DNA of 64,000 nucleotides from assembly GCA_021790195.1 (NCBI GenBank), contig JAJYIF010000006.1:1-64000 (forward strand), in the 5' to 3' direction. How positions within the stretch are numbered: position 1 is the stretch's first letter; every line of letters starts with the position of its first letter. Below the pieces are notes generated by a model. It searched no databases. It saw only the letters and a program-made list of their open reading frames with translations, and was not told the origin of the DNA. Of this stretch, positions 9,404 to 27,588 are shown in pieces. Source of the stretch: Nitrospirota bacterium (GTDB lineage: Bacteria > Nitrospirota > Thermodesulfovibrionia > Thermodesulfovibrionales > UBA9159). Made by a program: the position numbers and the translations under genes.

Positions 9404-10755
9404 AGATAATCATCAAGAACGGGCGCATCATCGATCCATCGCAGGATATGGATGGTATCGGCGACATCCATATTGAGAATGGGAAGATAACGAAGATAGT
9501 GGTGCGGAGAAACGGAGAAACGGAGAAACGGAGAGCCGGAAAGACAGAAGGACCAAACGGGAAGAGCGTTGAAGGGAATGCAGAAGGCCACTCTGTCGCC
9601 GAGTCTCCGCGTCAAAGAGAAATTGATGCGGCAGGGCTGTTCGTTATGCCCGGCCTTATCGATATGCATACCCATCTGAGGGAGCCGGGGTTTGAATATA
9701 AGGAGACCATTAAGACAGGGACCGCGGCCGCTGTGAAGGGCGGGTTTACCGCGGTCTGCGCCATGCCGAACACGAACCCGGTGAACGACAACTCGAGTGT
9801 TACGGATTTCATAATCAGAAAGGCGATCCAGGAAGGCGCCTGCACGGTGTATCCCATAGGAGCAATAACGAGGGGGCAGAAGGGAGAAGAGCTTGCCGAG
9901 ATGGGGATAATGTTCGGCGAAGGCTGCGTGGCCTTTTCCGATGACGGAAGACCTGTCATGAACAGCCAGATTATGAGAAGGGCCCTGGAATACTCGAGAT
10001 CCTTTAATGTGCCGATCATTTCTCATTGCGAAGACCTCAACCTCTCCGAGGGAGGCGTTATGAATGAGGGTCTCTTATCTGTTACTCTCGGCCTGAGGGG
10101 GATCCCGGCCGAGGCCGAAGAGACGATGATCGCAAGGGACATAGCCCTTGCGGGTCTCGCAAGGGGAAGACTTCATATCGCCCACGTCTCGACAAGGGGG
10201 TCGGTGCGGCTGGTCAGAGAGGCCAAGGAACGCGGCATGGATATCACGGCGGAGACATGTCCTCATTATTTCAGTGCCGGTGAAAAGGCGGTCCTGGGAT
10301 ACAACACGAACGCAAAAGTTAATCCTCCCTTGAGAACCGAGGAGGATATGGAAGCGATAAAACTGGGGTTAAAGGACGGCACAATCGACGTTATCGCAAC
10401 CGACCACGCGCCTCACCACAGGGATGAGAAACTGATGGAATTCGATCATGCGCCCTTCGGCATATCAGGGCTCGAAACTGCACTGGGTTTGAGTCTGAGG
10501 CTTGTTGAAGAAGGTGTCCTGACAGTCGGTCAGCTTGTGAAGAAGATGGCGCTGAACCCGGCGAGGATTTTAGGATTGAATAAAGGGACGCTAAGGAGCG
10601 GATCTGATGCTGATATAACAATAGTGGATCTGAAGAAGGAATTCAGTGTCAAAGCGGAAGAGTTTGCATCAAAAGGAAAGAATACTCCATTTGATGGATG
10701 GATATTGAAAGGAACGCCGGTGCTGACTATGTGCAAGGGGAAGATCTATGAATAA
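9400..10755 (+). CDS. pyrC: Dihydroorotase, with an in-frame low-complexity insertion
   Basis: A 451-residue amidohydrolase of the class I dihydroorotase type, which cyclises carbamoyl-aspartate to dihydroorotate. Zinc-binding motifs are visible: DMHTHLRE (about 89-96), a later SHCEDLNLS segment, [10 protein letters not shown] and ATDHAPH. ATG 9400 forms an ATGA junction with pyrB. About 40 residues between the first beta-strands (near [16 protein letters not shown]) and [10 protein letters not shown] have no counterpart in ordinary dihydroorotases. They are encoded by an 8-bp tandem repeat plus adjoining sequence at roughly 9505-9625. The insertion lies in the N-terminal beta-sandwich, away from the active site, so the enzyme is probably active. 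Confidence 0.95.
9505..9535 (+). repeat. 8-bp tandem repeat (CGGAGAAA) inside pyrC
   Basis: Three copies of CGGAGAAA and a fourth nearly complete copy lie head to tail within the coding frame. The period is not a multiple of three, so each copy is read in a different frame ([11 protein letters not shown]), yet the overall insertion keeps the gene open. Confidence 0.85.
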
Positions 10756-11863
10756 GGCGTTGCTCGTTTTGGCCGACGGAGCGGTTTTTGAGGGGACGTC
10801 CTTCGGCGCCGAGGGCGAGACGATCGGCGAAGTCGTTTTCAACACTTCGATGACGGGTTACCAGGAGATCCTTACGGATTCCTCTTACAAGGGGCAGATA
10901 GTCACCATGACATATACGCAGATCGGCAATTACGGCATCAACGAAGAGGACATCGAGTCCCAGGGCGGCATAAAGGCCGAGGGGTTTGTCGTGAAGGAGG
11001 CGTGCGATCTTCCATCCAACTGGCGCTCGTCCTCGAGCCTCACGGAATATTTCGTAAAGCAAAATGTCGTAGGCATACAGGGTGTCGACACAAGGGCGCT
11101 GACAAAGTATCTGAGGGACCACGGAGCGCAGATGGGGATAATCTCCACAACGGATTTGAACCCCGGCAGTCTTCTTGAAAAAGTAAGGGCACATCCCGGG
11201 ATTTCGGCATTCGATCTGGTGAAGGATGTCACCACGCCGAGAATCTATCCCTGGACAGAAGGCTGCTGGAAGTGGTGCGTCGTTGAAAGAAGCAAGGCGG
11301 TCCTGAGGGTGGCTGTCTATGATTTCGGCGTCAAGTTCAATATACTGAGAAACTTTGTGGAGGCCGGATTTGAGGTGACTGTCGTGCCTGCGCAAACGCC
11401 CGCTGAAAAGGTGCTCGAAACGGACCCTGATGGAATCGTGCTGAGTAACGGTCCGGGGGACCCTGAGATGGTGACTTATGCTATTGAGAACACAAGAAAG
11501 CTCCTGGGCAGAAAACCGATCTTCGGGATCTGTCTCGGTCATCAGATACTGGGACTGGCGCTGGGCGGCAGAACGTATAAACTGAAATTCGGCCATCACG
11601 GCGGCAATCATCCTGTTAAGGATTTGTCTACGGGGAGAGTCGAGATAACGTCCCAGAACCACAACTACTGCGTGGACATTGAGAGCGTCAGGGGAAAGGC
11701 GAAACTCACTCATAAGAACCTTTACGACGGGACCGAGGAAGGGATGCAGCATGTGGAACTGCCGGTATTCTCCGTTCAGCATCATCCCGAGGCAGGTCCC
11801 GGCCCGAATGACTCCGTGCATCTGTTTAAGAGGTTCAGGGAGATGATCGAGGGCGGCAAATGA
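10748..11863 (+). CDS. carA: Carbamoyl-phosphate synthase small (glutaminase) subunit
   Basis: A 371-residue amidotransferase subunit that frees ammonia from glutamine for CarB. The N-terminal CPSase small-chain domain ([26 protein letters not shown]) is followed by a class I GATase domain with the nucleophile Cys in GICLGHQ and the His/Glu pair in [11 protein letters not shown]. It overlaps pyrC by eight bases. The large subunit gene carB is not next to it but 12 kb downstream, past the BREX island. The island's first reading frame starts in the ATGA of the carA stop, so the operon was cut or extended exactly at the end of carA without visible damage to the protein. Confidence 0.97.
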
Positions 11864-12111
11864 AGAAGGAACTCATTGTCGAATTGTTCAGAAAATTTGA
11901 AGAAGCCTGCTATCTATTCAATGATCTTGAATGCTGGAGCGCGCGTGAATTACAGGAGATATTGGGCTATACCGAATGGCGAAATTTCCTCAAGGTGGTA
12001 GACAAAGCAAGAATAGCCTGTGAAAATACGGGCATTTCTGTCACTGATCAGTTTGTTGATGTCAACAAAATGATCGAAAGCCATTTTGTCGGTTCTAATA
12101 ATAGGGCGTAG
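11860..12111 (+). pseudogene. N-terminal fragment of a DinD-like (DNA-damage-inducible protein D) gene
   Basis: 83 residues beginning [19 protein letters not shown], with WSARELQEILGYTEWRNF and a DQFVDVNKMIE segment. These match the N-terminal ~80 residues of DinD proteins, which relate to BRO/ANT-type phage antirepressor domains. Intact DinD proteins are around 270-290 residues, so two thirds are missing; the last residues (SHFVGSNNRA) are unlike the family. The matching C-terminal end occurs at 12960-13109, beyond a KilA-N gene. Its ATG overlaps the carA stop codon. It may still be made as a short domain protein, but I treat it as the front half of a split gene. Confidence 0.65.
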
Positions 12112-12135
12112 GAGAAAGATAGAAAGAAATTATCT

Positions 12136-12963
12136 ATGGCAAAAAATAAGACCATCAATGTTAAGGGGACTGAAATCGTTGTTATTAGTTCGCATGACAA
12201 TGATTACATTTCTCTAACGGATATTGCCCGTTATAAGGATCCGGAAAGAACCGATTACATCATCCAAAACTGGCTGCGAAACCGTAATACCATTGAACTG
12301 CTTGGATTCTGGGAGATGCTTTACAATCCCGATTTTAAACCCATCGAATTCGATGGGTTTAAAATGCGGGCTGGGTTAAATAGCTTTACTCTTACCGCGA
12401 AGCAATGGATTGAAAAGACGAAGGCGATCGGGATCATTTCAAGGTCGGGAAGATATGGAGGAACCTTTGCCCATCGGGATATTGCACTTGAATTTGCATC
12501 ATGGATCTCTATTGAATTTAAACTTTTTCTCATCAAAGAATTCCAACGCCTCAAAACAGATGAGAACGACAGATTAAAACTTGAATGGAATCTGCAGCGC
12601 ACTTTAGCAAAGGTCAATTACCATATCCATACAGATGCCATCAAAGAAAATCTTATTCCGTCAGAACTTACTAAACAGCAAATCAATTTCGTTTATGCCA
12701 ATGAAGCTGACATGCTGAATGTGGCCTTATTTGGAATGACCGCCAAACAATGGCGGGATGCTAATCCGAGAGCTCAGGGAAACATACGCGATGCTGCAAG
12801 CATTGAACAGTTAGTAGTGTTGAGCAACATGGAAAGCATCAATGCCGTGTTAATTCATCAGGGCCTGCCGCAAAATGAGCGGTTGGTGCAACTCAATAGA
12901 ATCGCAATCACACAGATGAAATCGCTTATTTCCAGCCGGCAAATTGCGAGACTCAAAAGGTGA
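12136..12963 (+). CDS. KilA-N domain protein
   Basis: 275 residues. The N-terminal ~110 residues form a KilA-N DNA-binding domain (YISLTDIARYK, DYIIQNWLRNRNTIELLGFWE, GRYGGTFAHRDIALEFASWIS). The rest is helical and shared by stand-alone bacterial KilA-N proteins often found near phage or defence genes (FVYANEADMLNVALFGMTAKQW). KilA-N proteins are usually linked to phage antirepression or regulation; the role here is unknown. It sits between the two halves of a DinD-like gene, 24 bases after the first and overlapping the second by four bases. Base composition is A+T-rich like the BREX genes downstream. Confidence 0.85.
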   Translation: MAKNKTINVKGTEIVVISSHDNDYISLTDIARYKDPERTDYIIQNWLRNRNTIELLGFWEMLYNPDFKPIEFDGFKMRAGLNSFTLTAKQWIEKTKAIGIISRSGRYGGTFAHRDIALEFASWISIEFKLFLIKEFQRLKTDENDRLKLEWNLQRTLAKVNYHIHTDAIKENLIPSELTKQQINFVYANEADMLNVALFGMTAKQWRDANPRAQGNIRDAASIEQLVVLSNMESINAVLIHQGLPQNERLVQLNRIAITQMKSLISSRQIARLKR

Positions 12964-13109
12964 AGAATAGAGCCGTGTGCAAAATGTTAATTGAGCGAGG
13001 CGTAAAACCTGAAGCCTTGCCCCCTGCCGATGATGTAAAGAAGACTCAGCGCAAGTTGGAGGGTGATGAAAAGAAGCTGTTGAATGATGTGAAAAGAAGG
13101 AAGAATTGA
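12960..13109 (+). pseudogene. C-terminal fragment of a DinD-like gene
   Basis: A 49-residue frame from GTG 12960 (VKNRAVCKMLIERGVKPE) to the TGA at 13107-13109. The pattern NRxVxxML-ERGxxPExLPxAxDVKKxxRKL is the signature C-terminal end of DinD proteins. It starts in the last codons of the KilA-N gene. Together with 11860-12111 it shows a dinD gene whose middle has been replaced by a complete KilA-N gene. Confidence 0.6.
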
Positions 13110-13179: not shown

Positions 13180-15546
13180 ATGTTCAAGATAATTTGGGAT
13201 TATGAATCAAGAGGGGTGCTTCTTTCGTCAAATGACGACGGTGCCGACGTTATACTATTACCCCGCCCCGTTTTCTTCGAAGAGCTGGATATATTAGGAT
13301 TTGATCAATATTGGGACTACCCTAAAGTTGATAAACCTTTGCTTTGGGCTAATGGGCGGAGATATTACTACCGGGGTGAGTTCGTGGCAGAAGCCAAAGG
13401 TGGTGATATTTTTACTGCCCCGCAATTGATTTTCCATGAAGGGAAAGCGAAACTTTCCCTTAAACCTGTGAATGTAAAACTCATGCTTCAGAAGAACAAA
13501 GAGGCAATATTTATTTTAGAAAATGAAGCGATGGACTTTGTGGAGCATGTCTACAAAATTTATAAGAAGAAAACTGACTATTTTGCTGTTTCTTTTAGTG
13601 GTGGTAAAGATTCCCAGGTCGTACTCGACATCGTGAGTAGAGTTATTCCGCCAGATGAATATCATACGGTTTTTACTGATACAGATATGGAACTACCATC
13701 TACGTATGAAACTGTTAAGAAAACAAAAGAATACTATGCCGATATCTACCCAACTCTAAAATTTGAGATAGCGAAGAGTCCTTATGCCTCGGTAGAATTA
13801 TGGGAAAAGTTCGGCCCCCCGAGTAGACTTCAACGATGGTGCTGTTCCGTTTGTAAAACAACGCCTTTTGTCAGACTCATGAAACTATCTTTAAATGGAG
13901 CAAAACAACCTAAGATAGTAGTTTTTGATGGCGTCCGTAGTGATGAAAGTGCAAGAAGGGATTCTTATGGAAGGATTGCCAGTGGAGTAAAGCACCTGAA
14001 TATGATAAATAGCAGACCGATCATAAAATGGAATGAAACTGAGGTGTTCTTATATCTTTTTTACAGAAATATTCCTATTAATAAGGCATATAAATTTGGA
14101 TTGAACAGAGTGGGATGTAGTATTTGTCCTTTTGCCTCTGAATGGTCTGATTACCTGGTTAATAAGTTACATCCAGAAATTTCAGCAAAGTTTCTTGAGA
14201 TCATTAAGAAATATGTAAATCAAACAGGGATACGAGACAAAAAGGAGATATCGCAATATTTGATCGAAAGGCAATGGAAGAAAAGAGCAGGCGGCAAAGG
14301 GATGAGTCTTGACAACACGCGCGTAGATTTTACACAAAACAAATCAACCATAGAAGCTTTTCTTTCCAATCCAAAAGAAAATGTTCTTGAATGGCTAAAA
14401 ACGTTGGGAGATCTACTTTATAGAGAAAAAAATAACAAAATAGTGGGTGGGATCAAGATAAAGGAAGGCGTTTGTAATTTTGAATTTGAAAACAAAGCTG
14501 CGAATAAGAAATCGATTATCCGCATAAAAATTCCAGACCACAACAATTATGTGCTTATTAGTAGACTAAAAAACGCTATTTATAAGGCAACCTATTGTGT
14601 TCATTGTGGGACCTGTGAGGTTGAGTGCCCGAAGGCTGCTTTAAAGGTAATCCCTGAGGTGAAAATTAATTCGACAGCATGCAAAGCATGTGGCAGCTGC
14701 CTTACTTTTACTGACAAGGGTTGTCTGTTGGCAAAATCAGTGGCCGAAACCGGAGGAGGAGAAGGCATGAATTTGAAAAGTTCAAGCATTGATAGATATT
14801 CATCTTTTGGCATGAAAAAAGAATGGATCGATTTTTTCCTTAAAAATCCGGGGCAATGGTTTGCGGACAACAATCTGGGGCCAAAACAAGTTGCTGGTAT
14901 GGTCAATTGGTTGAAAGACTCAGAGTTACTTGAAAGAAAAGAAAAATCTCCAACTCGTATTTGCAATATTCTTAGGAATGTTTATCCCAAGGATGAGCTC
15001 CTCGTGTGGACTATTATGTGGATCAATCTGTTCTATAATTCACCAATTATCCGTTGGTATATTCTATATGTTGAATCCAACAAGGGATTTTCAAACAATG
15101 ATTTGCTTGAAATGATAAAAAGTAATTTCCCCAATCTTTCCGAAAGAACAATATATAATTCACTAAAGTCATTAATTATGCTATTTGAGCACAGCCCCTT
15201 CGGAAAAGAGCTACGCTTTGGAATTGTAGAGCAAAAAGGAAACAAGAGACATATCATAAGATTCGGAAATAATGAAATTAGCCCTCCCGCTATAGCTTAC
15301 TCGCTTTACAGGTACGCGAAGAGCAAGAAAAGATATTCATTGACCGTCAATGAATTTTATAATAATGACCAGGATGAGGGACCGCATCGCATTTTTCAAA
15401 TTTCAAGAGAGCGTCTTGAAAATATATTGCGATATCTTCAGGAGGATAAAGCGGACATTCTTAAGGTGGATCTCACCAAGGGGCTTGACAATATTAATCT
15501 GCGAGAGGAATTGGATTATATCGATGTTCTTCAACGTCTCGTATAA
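13180..15546 (+). CDS. brxP: BrxP: PAPS-reductase-family protein of type 4 BREX
   Basis: 788 residues, first gene of a four-gene defence operon. Residues 1-115 are a conserved leader domain; about 125-370 is an adenosine-phosphosulfate-reductase-like (N-type ATP pyrophosphatase) domain with the PP-loop SGGKDS at 140-145, as in the phosphorothioation protein DndC. From Cys473, two clusters CxxCxxCxxxC and CxxCxxC...C form a ferredoxin-like 2[4Fe-4S] segment. About 530-788 resembles DUF4007, a domain seen with DNA phosphorothioation and BREX genes. Type 4 BREX is defined by this gene and lacks the PglX methylase; sulphur-based marking of host DNA is therefore an attractive inference, not shown here. 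The ATG lacks a clear ribosome-binding site. Confidence 0.85.
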   Translation: MFKIIWDYESRGVLLSSNDDGADVILLPRPVFFEELDILGFDQYWDYPKVDKPLLWANGRRYYYRGEFVAEAKGGDIFTAPQLIFHEGKAKLSLKPVNVKLMLQKNKEAIFILENEAMDFVEHVYKIYKKKTDYFAVSFSGGKDSQVVLDIVSRVIPPDEYHTVFTDTDMELPSTYETVKKTKEYYADIYPTLKFEIAKSPYASVELWEKFGPPSRLQRWCCSVCKTTPFVRLMKLSLNGAKQPKIVVFDGVRSDESARRDSYGRIASGVKHLNMINSRPIIKWNETEVFLYLFYRNIPINKAYKFGLNRVGCSICPFASEWSDYLVNKLHPEISAKFLEIIKKYVNQTGIRDKKEISQYLIERQWKKRAGGKGMSLDNTRVDFTQNKSTIEAFLSNPKENVLEWLKTLGDLLYREKNNKIVGGIKIKEGVCNFEFENKAANKKSIIRIKIPDHNNYVLISRLKNAIYKATYCVHCGTCEVECPKAALKVIPEVKINSTACKACGSCLTFTDKGCLLAKSVAETGGGEGMNLKSSSIDRYSSFGMKKEWIDFFLKNPGQWFADNNLGPKQVAGMVNWLKDSELLERKEKSPTRICNILRNVYPKDELLVWTIMWINLFYNSPIIRWYILYVESNKGFSNNDLLEMIKSNFPNLSERTIYNSLKSLIMLFEHSPFGKELRFGIVEQKGNKRHIIRFGNNEISPPAIAYSLYRYAKSKKRYSLTVNEFYNNDQDEGPHRIFQISRERLENILRYLQEDKADILKVDLTKGLDNINLREELDYIDVLQRLV

Positions 15547-15570
15547 AGAAGGCATCATGGGGATAGAGTC

Positions 15571-18500
15571 ATGAAATATGCAGATATTATAGGCGTACAA
15601 AATTACTTCAGGGATGTCTATGACATAACTGATGAGCCCAAGGATTATTGGAAGCAGTTTATTCCTACCAGCAAATTTTACGATGTTCTGAATGCAACGA
15701 TAGAAAATTTGGATGCAGCAGAACCGAAGAATATTTGGGTTCAGGGCACATATGGAACTGGCAAGAGTCATTCCTCAGCAGTGATTAAGCACTTGCTTTG
15801 GGACGATCTGTCAGACATTGAATCCTACATAGATTTGCTTCGACCACAGACAAAACAAAGACTTAAGAATTATAGAAAAAAGAAACGAGTTTTCCCCGTC
15901 ATATTAAAAGGCATATCCGATATTACCGATAATAGAACTTTTTCTCTGGTTCTGGAAAGAGCTGTTAAAGATTCACTGAAAAAGAATGGAATTAAGCTTA
16001 CAACTGCCAGCGACTTTGAGATCATGATTGCCAAGTTACAGGATAATCTCATCAACTGGGATTCATTAATAGGGGAAAACCCGGAAATTAACATGTATGA
16101 GCAATCTACCTCGGGACTGATAAGGAGATTAGAACAACAAGATATAACTATATTGAAATCGTTGGAATCGGTACTCAGCAAGAAAGGTGTTCACTTTTCC
16201 TATTCTGACATATCTAAATGGCTCTCGGAACTTACAAAGGAGATCACGGATAAAAAAGAGGCAGATGTCTTGGCAATTTATTGGGATGAGTTTACCCCTT
16301 TACTCGAAATGAGCCGGAACAGTGAAATATTAAGCCAGTTGCAGAATATTGCCGAGCTGAGCAGGACAAATAAAATCTCTCTTTTCATCGTAAGCCATAG
16401 AAAGCCTTCACAAGCTGGCCTCCTTGCCGAAGATGCAAAAAAGGTATTTGATAGATTTCATATCAAAGATTATTCTATGGAGCCAATAACGACATACCAC
16501 ATTATTTCAACTGCAATAATGAAAAAAGATGATTCAAAATATTCAGAGTTAAAGAATGATTTTTTCAAGAACAATCCAAATATCGATTCTCTTATCAGGA
16601 GCATATCCGGAAATGAGAATGCCACGGTAACGGCAGAAATCAAAAATCTATTTCCCATTCATCCTTTCACAGCGTATGTTGCTACCTTCATAGCGAGAAA
16701 TTTGGGTTCCACACAAAGAAGCATTTTCAGTTTTCTCAATGACAAGGAGAATGGTTTTGCTAACTTTCTTAGTAAGGAGGTCGATGGCGATGTCCCTGTA
16801 CTAACTTCAGATTATCTATGGACTTTCTTCATCAATGAACTGAGAAATGATACATATGGCAAATTCTCCGCAATTATAAGCAAGTTTATCCTTCATAATG
16901 ACACCTTAGAGCAACAAGGTAATAATTATTCTGCAATCTTTAAAGGAGTACTCCTACTTAATGCTCTCCATACAATGATTGCAGTAGAAGAAGCAAGAGA
17001 AAGTCTAATTGCCCCTACTATGGAAAATGTGAAATTAATGTTTGCGGGAACCAGCATTGAACCACTCGTCGAATCGATATTGGAATATATAGATAGGAAC
17101 GAAATTATCCGCAAGAATCCGAGCAACTTATTCCTTATTTCATCAACGACATTGCCATTGCGCGAAGTCGAGGAAGAAAAAGAGAAAGTCAAAAATGAGT
17201 ACGAGGATATTATCAAGGTGCTGGATACCCAGAATTCAAAGAAAATAACAGAGCTGTTTGCTGGCAGTGTCATTCGCGCGACGGACGTCACGCTTTATTG
17301 GGCGGGTGAGAAAGAAAACGTCCTGAAGAACAGAATATTGAATAATAATACAGCGAAATCTTATTCATTGAATATTGCTGTAATGGTTTCAAAAACTGAA
17401 GCGGAATTAGCATCAATAAACTCTCTGGTCAAGAATCTATCAGGGAATGATATTAAAAATACAATATTTGTTATACCCGACGAACCCTTGGGAGAAGAAA
17501 GATTCTTACGATACGTAAGTTATATTGCGGAGGCAAGAGTTGCTCAAAGCCATAATGCTCAAGAAGAGGCAGTAAGAAGCCAGGGCGACGCAAGTAAGGT
17601 GATAGAAGGTTGGATCAGCGCTATTAAGATAAATTACTTTTCTATCTATCTGAATAGAGAGTCCTGGCGACAGATCCTGGGAGGTCTCGGCAGCTTAATA
17701 AATAATGTGTTGTCACCCACAATTTTTAAATTCGGCCTGGAGAACTTAAAAGAGCTAACAAAAAATCAGAACCTCTGGACATATCGAAATGCACAGGCAG
17801 CCGTTGAAATATTTCTGTTTGCCAATTCTCTTGATGAAATGAAGGCTAAGACTCGGGTGGCTCCAAATAGTTTTCTGAGAAAGTTGCTTATGAACAAACA
17901 GGGCAATTACTACATAACGGAAGATAATCTGGGAATCAAGGGAACGAGTTCTTCTGACCATCCTGTGATCAAAATAATGCAAGAGCTCGACACTCACTTT
18001 AAGGATATCAACGATTTAAATTTCCACCTGGGAGAGAAATTGAAGTTCCTGACAGAGCCGCCTTATGGAATATACAAGAATATGGTAAATATGGCTCTCG
18101 TGGGTTTCATAATGAGAAGATTTGTAGATAAATTATATGATGAGGGTACTGGTCGGCTGATAAGAAGCGACATCATGAGAGACAAAATATTGGAACTCTT
18201 TAAGTTCTGGGAGGGAAATTATTCAAGCAAATTAAGTGTCCGATTTGGAACTCTCGAAGAAAAGGCATTATGCGATATCCTTAAGAAATTGTTTACCATT
18301 GAAAATAAAGACGGCTTAAATAATATCCGGTGGGAAATAAAGGAATTTATAAATAGAAACGGTTACCCCATTTGGTCTCTCAAACTGCTCTCAAGAGGCG
18401 AGAGTATTAACAATTCCATTGATCAAATATTTCGATTAACAAAGTCGCTTGATAGCGAGATTAGTCTGGACGATGTAAAACAAATGTTAGCCGTAATACA

Positions 18501-18927
18501 GAATAATTCTTTTGATTTGGCTCTTTTGCTTAAGCCCGACAATTTCAGTGAAGGGTTCAAACTTTTTGTCAAGAATATTAAATCCGCGTGCATTCAGGAT
18601 AATGAATTTGATGAAGTCACAAGCTATTTGAACCAAAACATGCAGGAGTCTGTTTCATCATGGGAGGAGGAAAAGGTAAGAAGCAAGCTCATTGAATGGA
18701 GGCTTAACAAGGTTCGCCCGCCTATGCCGGGAAATGGCTTCTCTCCTGCTGAAGAGGGTGGGGGCTTTCCCGAAGGCAATTCAGTGTCGCCAGATGCAGA
18801 ATTCATTGCCGGGGTTAAGAATAGAATTGCTTCGTATCCGGGCGACCTTAAAGGATTAATTATTAGAATTATAGATGACAATCCTTCTTTTGCCTCCATT
18901 TTGAAGAAATATTTGGATAATGTTTGA
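15571..18927 (+). CDS. brxC: BrxC/PglY-family ATPase of type 4 BREX
   Basis: 1118 residues. A P-loop GTYGTGKSH at 59-67 and a Walker B segment ending in Asp239-Glu240 (AIYWDEF) mark the ATPase domain; the long remainder is helical with no clear catalytic motif. It matches BrxC/PglY, the large ATPase that, with PglZ, is common to BREX types and is needed for resistance. It starts 24 bases after brxP and its stop overlaps the pglZ start by eight bases. Codon use is A+T-rich relative to carA and carB. The type-specific name is supported by its place between brxP and pglZ. Confidence 0.85.
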   Translation: MKYADIIGVQNYFRDVYDITDEPKDYWKQFIPTSKFYDVLNATIENLDAAEPKNIWVQGTYGTGKSHSSAVIKHLLWDDLSDIESYIDLLRPQTKQRLKNYRKKKRVFPVILKGISDITDNRTFSLVLERAVKDSLKKNGIKLTTASDFEIMIAKLQDNLINWDSLIGENPEINMYEQSTSGLIRRLEQQDITILKSLESVLSKKGVHFSYSDISKWLSELTKEITDKKEADVLAIYWDEFTPLLEMSRNSEILSQLQNIAELSRTNKISLFIVSHRKPSQAGLLAEDAKKVFDRFHIKDYSMEPITTYHIISTAIMKKDDSKYSELKNDFFKNNPNIDSLIRSISGNENATVTAEIKNLFPIHPFTAYVATFIARNLGSTQRSIFSFLNDKENGFANFLSKEVDGDVPVLTSDYLWTFFINELRNDTYGKFSAIISKFILHNDTLEQQGNNYSAIFKGVLLLNALHTMIAVEEARESLIAPTMENVKLMFAGTSIEPLVESILEYIDRNEIIRKNPSNLFLISSTTLPLREVEEEKEKVKNEYEDIIKVLDTQNSKKITELFAGSVIRATDVTLYWAGEKENVLKNRILNNNTAKSYSLNIAVMVSKTEAELASINSLVKNLSGNDIKNTIFVIPDEPLGEERFLRYVSYIAEARVAQSHNAQEEAVRSQGDASKVIEGWISAIKINYFSIYLNRESWRQILGGLGSLINNVLSPTIFKFGLENLKELTKNQNLWTYRNAQAAVEIFLFANSLDEMKAKTRVAPNSFLRKLLMNKQGNYYITEDNLGIKGTSSSDHPVIKIMQELDTHFKDINDLNFHLGEKLKFLTEPPYGIYKNMVNMALVGFIMRRFVDKLYDEGTGRLIRSDIMRDKILELFKFWEGNYSSKLSVRFGTLEEKALCDILKKLFTIENKDGLNNIRWEIKEFINRNGYPIWSLKLLSRGESINNSIDQIFRLTKSLDSEISLDDVKQMLAVIQNNSFDLALLLKPDNFSEGFKLFVKNIKSACIQDNEFDEVTSYLNQNMQESVSSWEEEKVRSKLIEWRLNKVRPPMPGNGFSPAEEGGGFPEGNSVSPDAEFIAGVKNRIASYPGDLKGLIIRIIDDNPSFASILKKYLDNV

Positions 18928-21280
18928 CATGAAAAGTTTCTCTTCAATTCAGGAATTATTCGAAGAAATTGATAGCGATAAACTGTCGAATATTAATGAT
19001 CGATATCCAATTCGCTTTATTTTTTTGTCGTCAGTCCAATCGCTCAAGGAAGTAGTTAAGGCATTCGATAAGCATAGGATAAGCAGAGTTGAGCTTACGA
19101 CATTTCTTCCTCATGGGGATGGGTGGCTTACAGTTCATGAAATTATTAAAGCGTTATCTTCAATGGACGTTAATAAAGATGCCGTCATTTTGCCTCTCTC
19201 AGAATTAGTAAGATTCTTTGATAAGGATAGTTTCCTTTCAATATTTAATAGATTATCTGAGATAGAAAATGTGAGAAACAAAAAGAGAAGGCTTTATATT
19301 CCGCTGGTTGGTATATTTGAGAGGTTTAACCAGGAATTTTATAGTTTTTTCCATCGGAAAGATGAATGGGCACCAATATGGCAGATTTATGATGAGACAT
19401 TTGCGAAGAATAAAGTATATATCGTTGATTTCAAGGTGGATAATTTAACCCATGTTGATTTTATACAAAGCACCAAAGATTGGCTTAGCGCTTGGAAAAA
19501 AGACGATCTGAGTAACCTTCTGTGTTCATCAAAGAATTTGTCCGTTCTGTGTAAAAATACACTTCCGGATCAAGTTTTTGATGTCGATGAAATTCATAAC
19601 ATCAAAGAATTGTTGGCCAAAGTATATCGATTTGAAGTCCCCTTTGAATATGTAGAGACGGACAATCCTTTTTGGGAAAGGTTATTTAAAGAGGCTCTCA
19701 ATTTGCCTTCGAACGACTTTTCTCAGTTGGTAAAGAAGATTTGCGGCGTTGACAACATTGCTTCAAATGATATTCTCAGACTTTGGTTAGGGAGGCAGGA
19801 TACTTTCCATAAATGGCTATTGAGAAATTTTGTCGTTAGTAGAAACGAATGGAGCAAATCTTACTTGTGTCTTACCCTGGCTAATATAGACGAGATAGAT
19901 GATTTGGCATTATGCAGCAAATTGTGGTTGGCCATATTTGAATCGAACAATACTCTCCGTAAGAAGTCCTCTGAGGAACGCCGCGTGCTACTAAAGGACT
20001 TTTATGAAATTAAACCTCAGTTTCAAACGACATTTATTGAAGACGATTTGAAGGCAAGACTTGAAGGGATCCCCGACACTAATGAAAAACTGAGTCTATT
20101 GACTGATATCACTGGATTAGAGAGAGGCATATTACTTAATCTCTTTTCTCGCAATGAAGTGACAGAAGAAGCATTAAGGGACACTTATCAAGATCTCTAT
20201 TACTATCTTGATAATTTGATCCCAGATAACCTGCAACGCGATCACTGGCTTATTGAATATTTCAGGGAATATAAGATGTCCAAGCTTAAGGATGAAATTC
20301 TGCCGCCGCTGCAATCTTTGTTGCGCGAGAAGAACAATACCCAGGAAGAATTCTATAAGTGGTACTATTCTATTCAAAGCATATCTGATATTTTGCTATC
20401 GGAAAAAGTATCCAGAATATTTCTTATTGACGCAGTAGGAATGGAATGGCTGTCTTACTTATGCTATTTAATGGAAACAACCTGTGGATTAAACGTCGAC
20501 AAGAAATATATTGCGCGGGCAAATTTGCCATCCATTACCGAGTGCAATCGGATTCCAGATTCGGTCTACATCCAAAGTTTTGACAAAGATATTATTCATT
20601 CTGACTATAAGTATCCGGATACCTTTATACATCAACTGTCATTTCTCCGAGATATCGTCAGAAAATATATATTTATTTCCGGCAATGAAAAAATCGCCAT
20701 TTTATCAGATCATGGAACCACGGCGTTGGCAAGATTGGATAATCACTTGAAAAGCTATGATTTTGCTGAAGCATCGCATGAAGGCCGTTGCATGTGGTTA
20801 GACAAGCCCGAGGAGGTTAATGATCGGGATATTATCCTACATGAAGCTAATGGCCCGGCGATGCCACATAAGAGGTATTGTCTTATTACTCTGAACTATA
20901 CGTCGCTTTACCATAGGCCGAGACGTGAAACACATGGTGGAGGCACCCCGGAGGAGATTTTGGTGCCAGTCGTAATCGTGTCAAGGAAAAAAATATCTGA
21001 CTCCTTATCGTATATAATCGATCCAAAGGAAATCATCCTTTCTAAGAGGAATCCTGAACTCTTGCTACAGATATCACCCGTACCTAAAGAAGATCCAAGA
21101 CTTATTCTCGATAATAAGAATATTGGTAAACTTAAATACGATGCTGCTCAGGATAAGTGGTATATTAGATTGGATAAGCTGAAGAGCGGGTCTTATAACA
21201 TGGGCATAAGGATTGGTGATTGGCATTACAACATGAAAGTCGAAATAAAGGGTGGAATGCAGGAAAGTGACTTACTATGA
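18920..21280 (+). CDS. pglZ: PglZ: alkaline-phosphatase-superfamily protein of type 4 BREX
   Basis: 786 residues. The PglZ domain is in the second half: FLIDAVGMEWLSYL (about 500-515) carries the first metal-binding Asp, ILSDHGTT (about 593-601) the second metal site, and HGGGTPEEILVPVVIV the family's end signature. PglZ is one of the two hallmark genes of BREX (with BrxC) and is predicted to hydrolyse a phosphate or sulphate ester bond, substrate unknown. ATG 18920 overlaps brxC; ATG 18929 is an alternative. Its stop overlaps the brxL start as ATGA, so the two are probably translationally coupled. Confidence 0.88.
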   Translation: MFDMKSFSSIQELFEEIDSDKLSNINDRYPIRFIFLSSVQSLKEVVKAFDKHRISRVELTTFLPHGDGWLTVHEIIKALSSMDVNKDAVILPLSELVRFFDKDSFLSIFNRLSEIENVRNKKRRLYIPLVGIFERFNQEFYSFFHRKDEWAPIWQIYDETFAKNKVYIVDFKVDNLTHVDFIQSTKDWLSAWKKDDLSNLLCSSKNLSVLCKNTLPDQVFDVDEIHNIKELLAKVYRFEVPFEYVETDNPFWERLFKEALNLPSNDFSQLVKKICGVDNIASNDILRLWLGRQDTFHKWLLRNFVVSRNEWSKSYLCLTLANIDEIDDLALCSKLWLAIFESNNTLRKKSSEERRVLLKDFYEIKPQFQTTFIEDDLKARLEGIPDTNEKLSLLTDITGLERGILLNLFSRNEVTEEALRDTYQDLYYYLDNLIPDNLQRDHWLIEYFREYKMSKLKDEILPPLQSLLREKNNTQEEFYKWYYSIQSISDILLSEKVSRIFLIDAVGMEWLSYLCYLMETTCGLNVDKKYIARANLPSITECNRIPDSVYIQSFDKDIIHSDYKYPDTFIHQLSFLRDIVRKYIFISGNEKIAILSDHGTTALARLDNHLKSYDFAEASHEGRCMWLDKPEEVNDRDIILHEANGPAMPHKRYCLITLNYTSLYHRPRRETHGGGTPEEILVPVVIVSRKKISDSLSYIIDPKEIILSKRNPELLLQISPVPKEDPRLILDNKNIGKLKYDAAQDKWYIRLDKLKSGSYNMGIRIGDWHYNMKVEIKGGMQESDLL

Positions 21281-22698
21281 ATCCAATCGATGAAAAAATA
21301 AAAGATACGTTTCCTGATGAATCGGTATATAAAATGCCTGAACGGTATGGAGTTTTTTCAGGTAAGAACTTGCCTTCCTTCATTAAGGATTGGCTTATAA
21401 AGAAGTATACTGACAATGATGGAGATCTTGATACTCATGGTATCAAAAGCTTTTTAGAAGACCATATTCCATTGAAAGACAGCCGAATAAAGGGCAGACT
21501 TACAAATGATAATGAAGATGTTGTAGTCCTCACAAGAATTCTTATCGAACCGGATATCAAAGCCGGTGTCTTAAAGTTTTCTATCCCGGACATCGGCATA
21601 AAATTTAATGAGGGTGTGATTCCGTCTTATGTGGCAAAACAACATGCTGAGCTAAAGGGGGGAGAAATTTGGGGAGTTGTCAAATTGTCTTATCGCCCAC
21701 CTGATGGGCGGGAAAAAGGCGTAGTTGACCTCGTTGAATATAAGCCATTTAAACCATATGCCGTTGATTTGGAATATTACCGAACCATTAGAAAAGAATA
21801 CTCCACCGAAGAATGGATAGATTTATTAATAAGAGCTATGGAATATAATCCCCAAGGATTTGAGAATCTGACACAGAAATTGCTTTTCATTTCGAGGCTG
21901 CTTATATTTGTTGAACCGCGTCTAAATATAATCGAACTTGCGCCTAAGGGCACAGGCAAGTCTTATGTATTTGGCAACATCAGTAAATATGGCTGGCTAA
22001 TTAGTGGCGGAACCGTGTCGAGAGCAAAGCTATTTTATGATGTATCCAGGAGTACGATGGGTATTATTACTATATATGACTTCGTCGCAATGGATGAGAT
22101 CCAAACAATCAGGTTTTCTGATGAGAGTGAATTGAGAGGTGCATTAAAGAACTATCTTGAGTCAGGTGTCTTTACTGTAGCCAACGTGAGACAAACTTCC
22201 TCTGCTGGTTTGATGCTCTTGGGAAATATTCCCTTGGATAGTGGGAAAACCCCATTAAATCAAAAATACCTTGACGAATTACCTTTGTTCTTTCAAGATT
22301 CGGCATTGTTGGACCGCTTTCATGGTTTTATCGAGGGATGGAGGCTTCCACGGATGAATGAGAGTCTTAAGGTGCGTGGCTACACTCTTAATGTTGAATA
22401 TTTCTCTGAAATTTTGCATTGCTTACGGGAAAAACCTGATTATCCGAGTATCATAGATGAATTATTAGATATCCCTAGAAACGCTGATACACGTGATATC
22501 ACCGCGATAAAAAGATTGTCAAGCGCGTACCTTAAGCTTCTATTTCCTCAAGTTAAGAGCGGGCAAGATGTGAATAGGGACGATTTTAGTACATTCTGTC
22601 TAAACCCCGCTCTAACCATGAGAGGGATTGTTCGCAGGCAGATACATTTAATTGATAGGGAGTTTAAGGAGGAGCTTCCCCAGGTTAGCCTGAAATAG
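21277..22698 (+). CDS. brxL: BrxL-like AAA+ protein of type 4 BREX (short form)
   Basis: 473 residues. The AAA+ core has Walker A APKGTGKSYVFG (about 222-233) and Walker B IYDFVAMDE (about 266-274), followed by LLGNIPLD and a DRFHGFIEGW segment with the sensor and arginine-finger-type residues. Length and pattern match the ~470-residue BrxL relatives (formerly TIGR02688) rather than the ~680-residue type 1 BrxL, which adds a C-terminal Lon-like domain. That domain is absent, so the old label Lon protease would be misleading; type 1 BrxL itself acts on DNA. It is the last gene of the operon. After its stop, composition changes toward the host pattern within about 100 bases. Confidence 0.82.
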   Translation: MNPIDEKIKDTFPDESVYKMPERYGVFSGKNLPSFIKDWLIKKYTDNDGDLDTHGIKSFLEDHIPLKDSRIKGRLTNDNEDVVVLTRILIEPDIKAGVLKFSIPDIGIKFNEGVIPSYVAKQHAELKGGEIWGVVKLSYRPPDGREKGVVDLVEYKPFKPYAVDLEYYRTIRKEYSTEEWIDLLIRAMEYNPQGFENLTQKLLFISRLLIFVEPRLNIIELAPKGTGKSYVFGNISKYGWLISGGTVSRAKLFYDVSRSTMGIITIYDFVAMDEIQTIRFSDESELRGALKNYLESGVFTVANVRQTSSAGLMLLGNIPLDSGKTPLNQKYLDELPLFFQDSALLDRFHGFIEGWRLPRMNESLKVRGYTLNVEYFSEILHCLREKPDYPSIIDELLDIPRNADTRDITAIKRLSSAYLKLLFPQVKSGQDVNRDDFSTFCLNPALTMRGIVRRQIHLIDREFKEELPQVSLK

Positions 22699-22806: not shown

Positions 22807-23331
22807 ATGCTGCAAGATGTTACGTCCGACATTTATCACCTCCTCCATCCGAAGATGGTCTTCTTCGTCACGAGCATCGACAAGAGCGGAAAGCCTAATG
22901 TCATGACATGCGCCTGGGCGACGCCTGTGAGCGAGGAGCCGCCTATTGTGATCGTCTGTATTTCAAAAGAGAGCTATACGGCCGAATTGATAAGACAGAC
23001 AAAGGAGTTTGTAATCAATATTCCGACAAAGAAACTCCTGAAGGCGCTGTGGACCTGCGGGAAGACATCCGGGAGAGATACGGACAAATTCAGGAAGGCA
23101 GGACTCAAGATCATGGATGCGAAGAAGGTCGGACCTCCGGCAGTCGCCGGCTGCGCCGGGTACATAGAATGCAAACTGTGGAAGACCGTTGACGCCGGAG
23201 AATGTCATGTCTTCTTCGGCAAAGTCCTCTCGGCCTATGCCGACGAAATATATGTTGAGAAGGGCCTGTGGAAAGGAAATGCGGAGATTCCTCTGCACCT
23301 AGGAGGGAGCAGGATAGTTTATTTCAGATAG
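22807..23331 (+). CDS. Flavin reductase family protein (FMN-binding split barrel)
   Basis: 174 residues from ATG 22807 (MLQDVTSDIYHLLHPK); a GTG at 22774 would add eleven residues. The split-barrel fold is indicated by FVTSIDKSGKPNVMTCAWATPVS, which binds FMN, and the later FVINIPTKKLL and HVFFGKVL segments. Proteins of this family reduce or bind flavin; the electron partner is unknown. It is the first gene right of the BREX island and has host-like composition and codon use, so the island's right edge should lie between 22698 and about 22830. Confidence 0.8.
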   Translation: MLQDVTSDIYHLLHPKMVFFVTSIDKSGKPNVMTCAWATPVSEEPPIVIVCISKESYTAELIRQTKEFVINIPTKKLLKALWTCGKTSGRDTDKFRKAGLKIMDAKKVGPPAVAGCAGYIECKLWKTVDAGECHVFFGKVLSAYADEIYVEKGLWKGNAEIPLHLGGSRIVYFR

Positions 23332-23432: not shown

Positions 23433-24014
23433 ATGAAAGGAAACGAGCTTGTGTTCCGGACCGCATCTTTCAGTGCAGAGGGCAGGAGCATGCTCCATGG
23501 CGGCATTTATAACCGTGAGCTTTCGGCGAGCCTTGCCGCGGGCGCGGTAATCGTGGTGTCCGGACTTCTTCTGGCAGGTCATCTTAAGATCACAGCTCCT
23601 GTCTTTGTTGCATTCGTCATCCTGTTCGGCGCACTCTTTGTGATGTTCAGAATATATGTCTTTCGCGAACCGTCTCTCGAAGCGGTTTTTGACAAAGGAA
23701 AAGGAATTATCACCGTATCGAGGAGAAGGGCGGTCCGGAGCTTGGTGCGGTCATATGCGACGGGGGAGCTTTCCGGCATCAAGTTGGGCCATGTAACGGT
23801 TCAGCCTCAGAATATCGACGGCGTGGAATTTGTGGAAAAGATCGCGCTTCAACACGGGACCGTTATCCCGGGTTTTGGGAAAAGGGAAGATCTTTTTGTT
23901 GTGACGCTTGATTTTGGAGGAGACAAAGCCGTCATCTTCAGCTCCAGGGAAAGGCAGGAGGCTGAGGCGGTTTCGTCCGGATTGAAGAAATATATGGACA
24001 GTCACTACAGGTAA
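23433..24014 (+). CDS. Uncharacterised membrane protein with two transmembrane segments
   Basis: 193 residues that I do not recognise. Two hydrophobic segments at about residues 29-49 and 54-74 are separated by a short turn (HLKIT), leaving a short N-terminal and a C-terminal soluble domain of about 115 residues with alternating beta-like strands. The form resembles small bacterial PH-like or photosystem-assembly-like membrane proteins, but no motif settles it. ATG 23433 follows a weak purine stretch. Its stop codon coincides with the first base of the inverted-repeat element that precedes carB. Confidence 0.6.
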   Translation: MKGNELVFRTASFSAEGRSMLHGGIYNRELSASLAAGAVIVVSGLLLAGHLKITAPVFVAFVILFGALFVMFRIYVFREPSLEAVFDKGKGIITVSRRRAVRSLVRSYATGELSGIKLGHVTVQPQNIDGVEFVEKIALQHGTVIPGFGKREDLFVVTLDFGGDKAVIFSSRERQEAEAVSSGLKKYMDSHYR

Positions 24015-24170: not shown

Positions 24171-24222
24171 GTTGCAAGTTTTTTTGACGGACGGAATATA
24201 AAATTAGCGTTGAGAGGTGAGC

Positions 24223-27200
24223 GTGCCGAAAAGAACTGATATAGAGAAGATAATGCTGATAGGATCGGGTCCTATCGTTATCGGCCAGGCGTGCGAGTTT
24301 GATTATTCCGGTACACAGGCCTGCAAGGCCCTGCGGGAGGAGGGCTACAAGGTAGTGCTTGTGAATTCAAACCCCGCAACTATCATGACGGACCCCGAGA
24401 TGGCCGATGCTGTCTACATCGAGCCGCTTACCAGAGAGGTCCTCGAATTGATCATTGAGAAGGAAAAACCCGACGCTCTGCTTCCGACAATGGGAGGGCA
24501 GACAGCGCTGAACCTTGCGGTGGAGCTTGCCGAGTCCGGGGTCCTCGAAAAACACCGGGTGGAGCTCATAGGCGCCAAACTCCACGCCATAAAGAAGGCC
24601 GAGGACAGGGAGCTTTTCAAGGAGGCGATGGAGAAGATCGGACTTGAAGTGCCGAAAAGCGCTTATATTGGCAGCCTTCGCAAGGGGCTGGAGGCTGTTG
24701 AGGAGATCGGGTTTCCGGTCATACTGAGGCCTTCCTTCACCCTCGGCGGCATGGGCGGGGGCATCGCCTATAACATGGAGGAGTATGTGGAGATGCTCGA
24801 GAGGGGACTCAAGCTGAGCCCCGTCCACCAGGTCCTTGTGGAAGAGTCGGCGATAGGCTGGAAGGAATTCGAGCTCGAAGTGATGCGCGACATGAAGGAC
24901 AACGTCGTGATCATCTGCTCCATAGAGAATTTCGATCCCATGGGCGTTCATACCGGCGACTCGATCACTGTTGCGCCCGCCCAGACGCTCACCGACAAGG
25001 AATATCAGCGGATGAGGGACGCATCGATCGCCATTATCCGGGAGATAGGGGTCGACACCGGTGGATCAAATATACAATTTGCCCTTAATCCGGAGAACGG
25101 CAGGATGGTCGTCATAGAGATGAACCCGAGGGTCTCCCGGAGTTCGGCCTTGGCTAGCAAGGCTACCGGTTTCCCGATCGCCAAGATCGCGGCAAAGCTC
25201 GCGGTGGGGCTTGCGCTGGAGGAGATCCCTAACGATATCACAAAGGAGACCCCGGCGTCCTTTGAGCCGACGATCGATTACGTGGTGACAAAGTTCCCCC
25301 GTTTCGCCTTCGAGAAATTCCCCGAGGCCGATGTCACTTTGACCACCCAGATGAAGTCGGTCGGAGAGGTAATGTCCATAGGGAGGACGTTCAATGAGTC
25401 TCTGCAAAAGGCCTTAAGGAGTCTCGAAATCGGCAGCTACGGGTTCGAGGGGATTCGCGTGAGCAGCAGTGAGCTGAAAGCGAGATTGAAGATGCCTAAT
25501 GCGGAGAGGATATGGTACGTTGCCCAGGCGCTCAGGAACGGCATGTCTGTCGACGAGCTCTACAGCCTCACGATGATAGACCCGTGGTTTCTGAATAAAA
25601 TAAGGGATATTCTTTCCACAGAAGATGAGATCGAAGTTTATGCGAAGGGGATAAAGAGTGAAAAGACGAAGAGCCTTGCCCCCTATCTCCTTCCGAAGGA
25701 CCTCCTTGCGGAGGCAAAGGTGAAGGGTTTCTCCGACAGGGCCATCGCCGGGCTTCTTAAAGTGACGGAAGAGGACATAAGACACCTGAGAAGCCTGTGG
25801 AACATACGCGCCGTATATAAGATGGTCGATACGTGCGCTGCGGAGTTCAAGGCCCATACTCCTTATCTCTACTCGACGTATGAAAGACCGTTTTACAGAA
25901 TACAAGATGCAGGACGCAGGACGCAGGATACCCCGTTGGATCCCTCATCCCCAAGAGGGGAGTTCAAGGGTGAGGGTGCAATGCGCATCGTGAATCATGC
26001 ATCAGTCGAGAACGAATCTGACCCCACTGCAAGGAGAAAGGTCATTATTCTGGGTTCGGGTCCCAACAGGATCGGGCAGGGCATCGAATTCGACTATTGC
26101 TGCGTCCATGCAGTCTTTGCCCTGAAGGAGCTGGGATACGAAACCATCATGGTGAATTGTAACCCCGAGACCGTAAGCACGGACTATGATACTGCGGACA
26201 GGCTTTATTTCGAGCCTCTTACTATTGAGGACGTTCTCAACATTATAGATACCGAGAAGCCCGATGGAGTGATCGTTCAGTTTGGCGGTCAGACCCCCTT
26301 GAAGCTTGCCGTGCCGCTCGAAAGGGAGGGTGTGAAGATACTCGGCACATCGCCCGATTCCATCGACCGGGCGGAGGACAGGAAAAGGTTCAAGGAGCTT
26401 TTGCACAAACTCGACCTGAAACAGCCCGACAGCGACACCGCAATGTCCCCTGAGGAGGCCAGGGATATCGCAGGCAGGATTGGCTATCCTGTGATGGTAA
26501 GGCCTTCCTATGTTCTGGGCGGCAGGGCGATGGAGATAGTATACGACGAAAAGTCCCTTGCGGATTATATGGTGCGCGCGGTCAAGGCGTCCCCTGAGCA
26601 CCCCGTGCTCGTGGACAAGTATCTTGAGGACGCCATAGAGGTAGATGTAGATGCGGTTTCCGACGGGGTCGATGTAGTGGTCGGCGGCGTGATGGAGCAC
26701 ATAGAAGAAGCAGGTATACATTCCGGGGACTCGGCATGTTCTCTGCCCCCTTATTCCCTCAGCGGTCTCGTTGTCGATGAGATAAAGAGACAGACCATTG
26801 CCCTTGCGAATGACCTCCACGTTATCGGGTTGATGAACGTCCAGTTTGCGGTGAAAGAGGGCGACATTTACATACTCGAAGTCAATCCGAGGGCGTCGAG
26901 GACGGTGCCTTTTGTCTCAAAGGCGACAGGCGTGCCTCTGGCGAAGGTGGCAGCAAAGATCATGGGAGGATGCACGCTGAAGGAACTCGGCCTTACGTCT
27001 GAAAGGGAGATAAAGCACATCGCTGTCAAGGAGGCCGTTTTCCCTTTCGACAGGTTCCACGGCGTAGATACAATCCTGGGGCCGGAGATGAAATCTACTG
27101 GAGAGGCGATGGGGATCGACGAGGACTTCGGCCTCGCTTATGCAAAGGCCCAGGAATCGTGTAACAACAAGCTGCCTCTTTCCGGGAAGGTGTTTATCAG

Positions 27201-27588
27201 TGTGAAAGACAAGGACAAGCCCGGCACCTGCCGCATAGTGCAGAAGTTCCTGGAGATGGGGTTCGATGTCGTCGCCACGAGGGGGACGGCGGCTCATCTG
27301 GGAAGCAAAGGGATAGAGGTCGGCGTGGTCAACAAGGTAATGGAGGGGAGACCTCATATAGTCGATCTGATAAAGAACAAGGAAATCAGCTTTGTCATCA
27401 ACACTGTGACCGGGGCCCAGGCGCAAAGGGACTCCCTTTCCATCAGACGCAGTGCGCTGCAGTATCGCGTAGCGTTCACTACGACCCTGTCGGGCGCCAA
27501 TGCCGTTGTGAACGCCATCGAGAAGCTGCTCAAACGGAAAATCCAGATAAAATCCTTGAACGACTACCATAAAGATGTCGGGAAGTAG
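24223..27588 (+). CDS. carB: Carbamoyl-phosphate synthase large subunit, with an in-frame linker insertion
   Basis: 1121 residues. It makes carbamoyl phosphate from bicarbonate, two ATP and the ammonia supplied by CarA. The two halves each have an ATP-grasp synthetase unit ([17 protein letters not shown] at the start; [17 protein letters not shown] near residue 610), and an MGS-like regulatory domain ends the protein. GTG 24223 gives the usual [10 protein letters not shown] start, five bases after GAGAGG; GTG 24217 would add two residues. Between [10 protein letters not shown] and the second half lie about 40 extra residues encoded around a 7-bp tandem repeat at 25906-25930. They fall in the inter-domain linker, so function is likely kept. 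It is separated from carA by the BREX island. Confidence 0.96.
25906..25930 (+). repeat. 7-bp tandem repeat (GACGCAG) inside carB
   Basis: GATGCAG, GACGCAG, GACGCAG and a partial GATAC follow head to tail and encode QDAGRRTQD in the linker between the two synthetase halves. With the sequence up to about 26035 it forms an insertion not found in ordinary CarB. Confidence 0.8.

What the first reader, a model, noticed from the sequence alone, without database searches (positions are those of the whole stretch)
13180..22698. Complete type 4 BREX operon (brxP-brxC-pglZ-brxL) inserted between carA and carB
Seen: four overlapping or closely spaced genes with a PP-loop reductase-like protein, a large P-loop ATPase, a PglZ-domain protein and a short BrxL-like AAA+ protein. 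Known: this content and order define type 4 BREX, a rare and little-studied branch with no PglX methylase. All catalytic motifs I can check are intact, so the system could be active. The location within a pyrimidine operon is unusual.
Basis: partly seen in the sequence, partly recalled or inferred. Interest (0 to 1): 0.8.

Follow-up and report, generated by a model that had tools for sequence, protein, structure and literature searches.

The report
Type 4 BREX inside pyrimidine operon
A complete, intact set of genes for a known anti-virus system that probably tags DNA with sulphur has landed inside a bacterium's pyrimidine-synthesis operon, and related bacteria repeatedly carry other DNA-cutting or DNA-modifying defence systems at the same spot, which looks like a previously unnoticed landing site.

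Summary
Window 13180-22698 (+) encodes an intact brxP-brxC-pglZ-brxL (brxPCZL) operon. Every protein matches the type 4 BREX models over its full length, and the catalytic residues are conserved across distant relatives. Type 4 BREX is already described: it installs DNA phosphorothioate in place of PglX methylation. This is therefore a new member of a known kind. It is horizontally acquired (38% GC against 53%; nearest BrxP, 50% identical, is in Desulfonema magnum).

Relatives without the insert run pyrB-pyrC-carA-(flavin reductase)-(hypothetical)-carB, so a roughly 10.9 kb block (dinD remnants, KilA-N gene, BREX-4) entered directly behind the carA stop. Of 101 genomes of the order with carA and carB on one contig, eleven have gaps over 1.7 kb, and eight of these hold restriction-modification genes or BREX, all on the operon strand and all different. 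The pyrC-carA junction next door gave 0 of 6 (Fisher one-sided p = 0.007). The carA-carB interval thus looks like a recurrent defence landing site inside a housekeeping operon; I found no earlier report of it. Numbers are small, and any functional link to pyrimidine synthesis is speculation.

The parts
10748..11863 (+). carA, carbamoyl-phosphate synthase small subunit; left flank of the insertion (stop TGA 11861-11863)
   Evidence: TIGR01368 500 bits; syntenic in relatives
11860..12111 (+). dinD N-terminal fragment (83 aa, about DinD residues 1-74), start codon overlapping the carA stop (ATGA)
   Evidence: NF008573 75 bits, profile 1-75 of 288; PADLOC PDC-S13 84 bits; sequence
12136..12963 (+). 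KilA-N domain gene (275 aa), PADLOC candidate family PDC-S22, sitting in place of the middle of dinD
   Evidence: PF04383 83 bits; PDLC04962 461 bits over residues 1-274
12951..13109 (+). dinD C-terminal remnant (matches DinD profile positions 240-284)
   Evidence: frame read; NF008573 E 3.6e-6
13180..15546 (+). brxP: PAPS-reductase/PP-loop domain (SGGKDS 140-145), 8-Cys ferredoxin-like region (473-515), C-terminal DUF4007 (SspB-like)
   Evidence: PDLC02510 956 bits; PF01507, PF13182; conserved residues in an alignment of 19; model pLDDT 87.7 matches PAPS reductases and SspB
15571..18927 (+). brxC: large P-loop ATPase, short form (1118 aa); Walker A GTYGTGKS 59-66, Walker B WDEFT 238-242
   Evidence: PDLC02472 939 bits over 1-1116; motif residues conserved in an alignment of 12
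18920..21280 (+). pglZ, type 4: AAA/ORC-like N-terminal domain without a Walker A motif (about 7-160), PglZ/alkaline-phosphatase-type domain (about 415-690), C-terminal Ig-like domain (about 691-779)
   Evidence: NF033445 541 bits; invariant D504, T540, D555, D597, H598, H672; model pLDDT 87.3, PorX Z 16.6, Acinetobacter BREX PglZ Z 15.2
21277..22698 (+). brxL, short form (473 aa) without the Lon protease C-terminus; Walker A PKGTGKS 223-229, Walker B DE 273-274
   Evidence: TIGR02688 476 bits, PF13337 379 bits; solved BrxL 8emc/8emh E 4.7e-53
22807..23331 (+). native flavin-reductase-like gene, right flank; native ATG at 22807 by comparison with relatives; the insertion's right junction lies somewhere in 22699-22806
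   Evidence: PF01613 122 bits; alignment of starts in relatives
23433..24014 (+). native 193-aa hypothetical gene, conserved between carA and carB in relatives
   Evidence: tblastn synteny
24217..27588 (+). carB, carbamoyl-phosphate synthase large subunit
   Evidence: NF003671 1735 bits

Best explanation
This is a complete, probably functional type 4 BREX (brxPCZL) anti-phage system that was acquired horizontally and inserted between carA and the flavin-reductase gene of a pyrB-pyrC-carA-x-y-carB operon. Likely mechanism: a housekeeping cysteine desulfurase supplies sulphur. BrxP, a PP-loop ATP pyrophosphatase with iron-sulphur centres and an SspB-like DNA-binding tail, together with the BrxC ATPase, installs phosphorothioates at short host DNA sites and so marks self. 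PglZ, an alkaline-phosphatase-superfamily phosphodiesterase/nickase with an inactive AAA-type N-terminal sensor domain, and the BrxL AAA+ motor block replication of unmarked phage DNA. Gene content, domains, intact motifs, horizontal origin and insertion point are shown here. Phosphorothioate chemistry and phage defence come from the literature on the family. Activity in this organism is inferred. The insertion site appears to be a recurrent landing place for restriction-type defence genes in this order.
For: Full-length family matches for all four proteins. The same four-gene order occurs in about 40 loci of other genomes and in an annotated Methanosphaera plasmid. PP-loop, eight ferredoxin-type cysteines, PglZ metal/nucleophile residues and Walker motifs are invariant or near-invariant in alignments of 5-19 proteins reaching down to 17-30% identity. 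Predicted folds match PAPS reductase/SspB and PorX/BREX PglZ. BrxP carries the only PAPS-reductase domain in the genome, so no other such sulfurtransferase was seen; three NifS/IscS/DndA-like cysteine desulfurases lie elsewhere. Insert GC 0.387 against 0.531; nearest BrxP relatives are in other phyla; only 5 of 296 genomes of the phylum carry BrxP. Empty sites in relatives. Different defence cargo at the same site in seven other genomes.
Against: No activity data. No cysteine desulfurase gene in the operon (literature: present in 56% of type 4 taxa, PMC12839542). No convincing promoter in front of brxP: consensus sites occur at the chance rate. The upstream dinD/KilA-N block shows that part of the insert has been rearranged. 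The landing-site claim rests on 8 insertions and was formed after seeing the first ones.
Confidence: 0.9

Rival explanations
1. It is an Ssp-type (SspBCD) phosphorothioation system rather than BREX type 4, since BrxP, BrxC and DUF4007 are homologous to SspD, SspC and SspB.
For: Weaker PADLOC matches to SspD (54 bits), SspC (81) and SspB (18); the BrxP model matches solved SspB.
Against: BREX models score more than ten times higher and full length. PglZ (type 4 exception model) and BrxL are present; no Ssp effector model is hit in the insert.
Confidence: 0.03
2. The operon is a decaying or silent relic: intact by chance after recent arrival, not expressed or not functional without its own cysteine desulfurase and promoter.
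For: No desulfurase in the operon; no clear promoter; neighbouring dinD is broken.
Against: 9.5 kb of coding sequence without a frameshift or stop, tight gene overlaps, all catalytic residues kept; suitable desulfurases exist in the genome; the operon could be read from the pyr promoter because every gene is on the same strand.
Confidence: 0.1
3. The location means nothing: the carA-carB defence cargo in several genomes is the normal background of mobile genes landing in a gap that happens to tolerate inserts.
For: Small numbers; two of the eleven long gaps are rearranged housekeeping genes and one holds only a short nucleotidyltransferase-like ORF; the pyrC-carA junction also takes inserts, including a MntA/HepT-type pair; the flavin-reductase gene is often lost, so the gap is permissive.
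Against: 8 of 11 long carA-carB gaps hold DNA restriction/modification/BREX genes, all co-oriented and all of different type, against 0 of 6 at pyrC-carA (p = 0.007). After the first 31 genomes suggested the idea, 5 of 7 further long gaps fitted it.
Confidence: 0.35

Closest known systems
BREX type 4 (brxPCZL) as described in human gut bacteria (Yuan et al., cited in PMC11931770 and PMC12839542; paper itself not held)
   Same: Gene content and order, BrxP with fused DUF4007, type 4 PglZ, short BrxL, no PglX
   Different: Host is a GC-richer bacterium of a phylum where the system is rare (5 of 296 genomes); no cysteine desulfurase in the operon; inserted inside a pyrimidine operon next to KilA-N and dinD remnants
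BREX-4 of Methanosphaera sp. ISO3-F5 plasmid pNP174 (annotated PglZ 'BREX-4 system phosphatase')
   Same: Same four genes in the same order; BrxP 42%, BrxC 35%, PglZ 34%, BrxL 58% identical
   Different: Plasmid-borne in an archaeon, different flanks, BrxC has an extra C-terminal repeat stretch
BREX-4 of Desulfonema magnum and Candidatus Aminicenantes
   Same: Closest BrxP relatives (50 and 47-48%), same order, same short BrxC (about 1130 aa)
   Different: Different phyla; the stretches held around them gave no match to the window's dinD or KilA-N gene
SspABCD-SspE / SspFGH and Dnd phosphorothioation systems
   Same: Homologous PAPS-reductase, ATPase and DUF4007/SspB components; DNA phosphorothioate
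   Different: Different effectors; no PglZ or BrxL
Defence islands/hotspots of E. coli (PMC10121019, abstract only)
   Same: Conserved genome positions at which different defence systems are exchanged
   Different: Here the site is inside a housekeeping operon, cargo is co-oriented with it, and no integrase was seen

Membership tests
BREX type 4 | BrxP: PAPS-reductase domain with DUF4007 | tested here: met
   PDLC02510 956 bits full length; PF01507 and PF13182 above cut-off
BREX type 4 | BrxC/PglY P-loop ATPase | tested here: met
   PDLC02472 939 bits, residues 1-1116; Walker motifs conserved
BREX type 4 | PglZ of the type 4 subfamily | tested here: met
   NF033445 541 bits against cut-off 140; fold match to PorX and BREX PglZ
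BREX type 4 | BrxL, short AAA+ form | tested here: met
   TIGR02688 476 bits against cut-off 329
BREX type 4 | Gene order brxP-brxC-pglZ-brxL | tested here: met
BREX type 4 | No PglX methyltransferase in the operon | tested here: met
   No methyltransferase among the ORFs of the insert; PglX elsewhere in the genome was not searched
BREX type 4 | DNA phosphorothioation | not testable with these tools
   Needs mass spectrometry or PT-seq; machinery present
BREX type 4 | Phage exclusion | not testable with these tools
   Needs plaque and efficiency-of-plating assays
Ssp phosphorothioation system | SspBCD proteins with SspE or SspFGH effector | tested here: not met
   BREX models outscore Ssp models more than tenfold and no Ssp effector model is hit in the insert
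Defence hotspot (operon-internal) | Same flanking genes, different defence cargo in several genomes, empty sites in others | tested here: met
   Eight genomes with cargo, 90 with gaps of 1.7 kb or less
Defence hotspot (operon-internal) | More defence genes than at a control junction | tested here: inconclusive
   8/11 against 0/6 long gaps, p = 0.007, small numbers, one control junction, hypothesis partly formed on the same data
Defence hotspot (operon-internal) | Integrase or other mobility mechanism | tested here: inconclusive
   No integrase among the insert's annotated ORFs; no direct repeat longer than 8 nt across the junctions

The most novel reading that the evidence does not exclude
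The carA-carB interval of the pyrimidine operon in this bacterial order is a recurrent, operon-internal landing site for restriction-modification and BREX systems. Incoming systems are always co-oriented, and often start on the carA stop codon, so that they are expressed with pyrimidine synthesis.
Probability: 0.55. Interest if true: 0.55.

Novelty: new member of a known kind. Interest (0 to 1): 0.42.

Why it matters
The operon itself adds a well-preserved example of phosphorothioate-type BREX from a host whose genome shows no other PAPS-reductase-type sulfurtransferase, so any phosphorothioate in its DNA could be assigned to BrxP. If the landing site holds up, it gives a concrete place to look for new defence systems in this order. 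It also raises a testable question: whether coupling defence genes to a nucleotide-synthesis operon is selected for or only tolerated.

Tried and rejected
Single-protein scan of genome contigs with BrxP found nothing; the alignment-based scan worked. An Ssp system was considered and rejected on scores. Terminal direct repeats or an att site for the insertion: only an 8-nt chance match. RNA families or riboswitches in the window: only the tRNA-Asn. Promoters/terminators in the insert: at the shuffled rate, so uninformative. The idea that pyrC-carA is an equal defence site: its inserts are a MntA/HepT-type pair, pRiA4b-like proteins, a heme-protein-like gene, pyrK/pyrD and a PIN gene, not restriction systems (the pRiA4b, heme, pyrK/pyrD and PIN names are read from the sequences by eye). 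BREX-4 of two other genomes of the order (G160, G263): found, but on contigs other than those of carA and only 29-38% identical, so independent acquisitions. A further blind test in family f10 added six short gaps and no insert. The primary BREX-4 paper is not held. Literature searches for a carA-carB defence hotspot found nothing.
Full report
Observation. Four ORFs lie at the stated coordinates on the + strand with the overlaps described: brxP 13180-15546, brxC 15571-18927, pglZ 18920-21280, brxL 21277-22698. All four match type 4 BREX models over their full length: PADLOC BrxP 956 bits, BrxC 939, PglZ 432, BrxL 737; NCBIfam BREX-4 PglZ NF033445 541 bits (cut-off 140) and BrxL TIGR02688 476 (cut-off 329); Pfam PAPS_reduct and DUF4007 in BrxP and BrxL_N/BrxL_ATPase in BrxL. 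Chance is not an issue at these scores. Pfam alone would have missed BrxC and PglZ.

Integrity. Across 19 aligned BrxP proteins (28-50% identical to this one) the PP-loop SGGKDS (G141 near-invariant), C221, C313/C316 and the eight ferredoxin-type cysteines 473, 476, 479, 483, 501, 504, 507, 515 are conserved. In 17 PglZ proteins D504, T540, D555, D597, H598 and H672 are invariant, as expected for a PglZ/alkaline-phosphatase active site. BrxC Walker A/B residues are conserved in 12 proteins and BrxL Walker A/B in five.

Predicted folds. The PglZ model (pLDDT 87) matches PorX, a PglZ-domain phosphodiesterase, at Z 16.6 over residues 401-690, and the solved Acinetobacter BREX PglZ at Z 15.2. Its N-terminus (7-160) resembles AAA/ORC-type ATPases and I see no Walker A motif there, in line with the inactive STAND domain proposed for type 4 PglZ (PMC12839542). 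The BrxP model (pLDDT 88) matches PAPS reductases and solved SspB.

Family context. [quoted passage not shown] PMC12839542 counts 457 type 4 taxa, with a cysteine desulfurase in 56%. Here no desulfurase is in the operon, but the genome has three NifS/IscS/DndA-like enzymes elsewhere, and BrxP holds the only PAPS-reductase domain in the assembly, so no second such machinery was seen. The same gene order occurs in about 40 loci fetched from other genomes and in an annotated Methanosphaera plasmid.

Origin. The insert is 38.7% GC against 53.1% for the rest of the window. BrxP is nearest to Desulfonema magnum (50% identity) and Candidatus Aminicenantes (47-48%), within a well-supported set dominated by Bacteroidota. 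Only 5 of 296 genomes of the phylum carry it. Two of the other carriers, G160 and G263, have distant versions of it.

Insertion. In relatives the order is pyrB-pyrC-carA-(flavin reductase)-(193-aa hypothetical)-carB, with small or no gaps. In the window everything from the carA stop (11863) to near the native start of the flavin-reductase gene (22807) is extra. The first inserted gene overlaps the carA stop (ATGA). It is the N-terminal part of dinD; the C-terminal part of dinD reappears at 12951-13109 (NF008573 positions 240-284, E 3.6e-6), with a KilA-N gene (PADLOC candidate family PDC-S22, 461 bits) in place of the middle. So the block was built in steps: dinD, then KilA-N replacing its middle, with BREX-4 beside it. 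The order of arrival of BREX is not known.

A landing site. In the first 31 genomes two others had defence genes in the same interval: an Mrr-type type IV enzyme (G008) and a type II methyltransferase (G021). I then measured carA-carB gaps from coordinates in 101 genomes of the order with both genes on one contig (82 new from 64/65, 6 new from 85/86). Eleven gaps exceed 1.7 kb. Eight hold restriction/modification or BREX genes: this window; G189 (EcoRV-like enzyme, N6/N4 methylase, D12 methylase, Mrr_cat-like protein); G131 (Eco57I-type methylase and BsuBI/PstI enzyme); G310 (N6/N4 methylase and an unknown); G021; G008; G315 (N6/N4 methylase and MvaI/BcnI enzyme); G211 (N6/N4 and D12 methylases and an unknown). 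The exceptions are two housekeeping rearrangements (G234, G236) and one short nucleotidyltransferase-like ORF (G024).

Features of the site. The restriction/BREX cargo is on the operon strand in all eight, is of lower GC than its surroundings, and in four cases begins on or inside the end of carA. The flavin-reductase gene is reduced to fragments in G131 and G310, which suggests the interval is dispensable. The pyrC-carA junction in the same genomes gave six gaps over 1.7 kb, none with restriction or BREX genes; two homologous ones carry a MntA/HepT-type pair. Fisher one-sided p = 0.007. After the first 31 genomes had suggested the idea, 5 of 7 further long gaps fitted it. The gap lists were tallied by hand from the tool output.

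Caveats. The hotspot numbers are small, only one control junction was tested, genomes are mostly draft assemblies, and the two 'unknown' partners are only presumed restriction enzymes. No integrase or repeat marks the site, so the mechanism of insertion is unknown. A link between pyrimidine supply and defence is speculation. The order's name was not available; the group looks like Nitrospirota/Thermodesulfovibrionales from my own knowledge, not from a test.

Verdict. The finding is correct: a new member of a known kind. The added value is the insertion site.

Noticed in passing
window 11860-13109: dinD is split: its N-terminal and C-terminal parts flank a complete KilA-N gene of a PADLOC candidate defence family (PDC-S22), so one gene has replaced the middle of another.
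   Followed up: partly
L141, L142, L143, L154, L157, L034, L036 (between carA and carB): Different restriction-modification systems at the same operon position in other genomes of the order, on the operon strand and often starting on the carA stop codon.
   Followed up: yes
L143:2229-3497 and L157:1570-2757: Two proteins of unknown family (423 and 396 aa; no match in Pfam, and none in PADLOC for the first) lie next to DNA methyltransferases in the carA-carB gap and may be undescribed restriction enzymes.
   Followed up: no
L147 and L148 (between pyrC and carA): A MntA/HepT-type nucleotidyltransferase pair with a DUF7309/DUF6930 protein sits between pyrC and carA in two genomes of one genus.
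   Followed up: partly
window brxC 15571-18927: BrxC length splits BREX-4 into short (about 1120-1190 aa) and long (about 1380-1430 aa) forms, roughly along the BrxP tree; the window has the short form.
   Followed up: partly
L047:196-1317: A 373-aa gene just upstream of a distant BREX-4 in genome G263 matches PADLOC candidate family PDC-S57.
   Followed up: no
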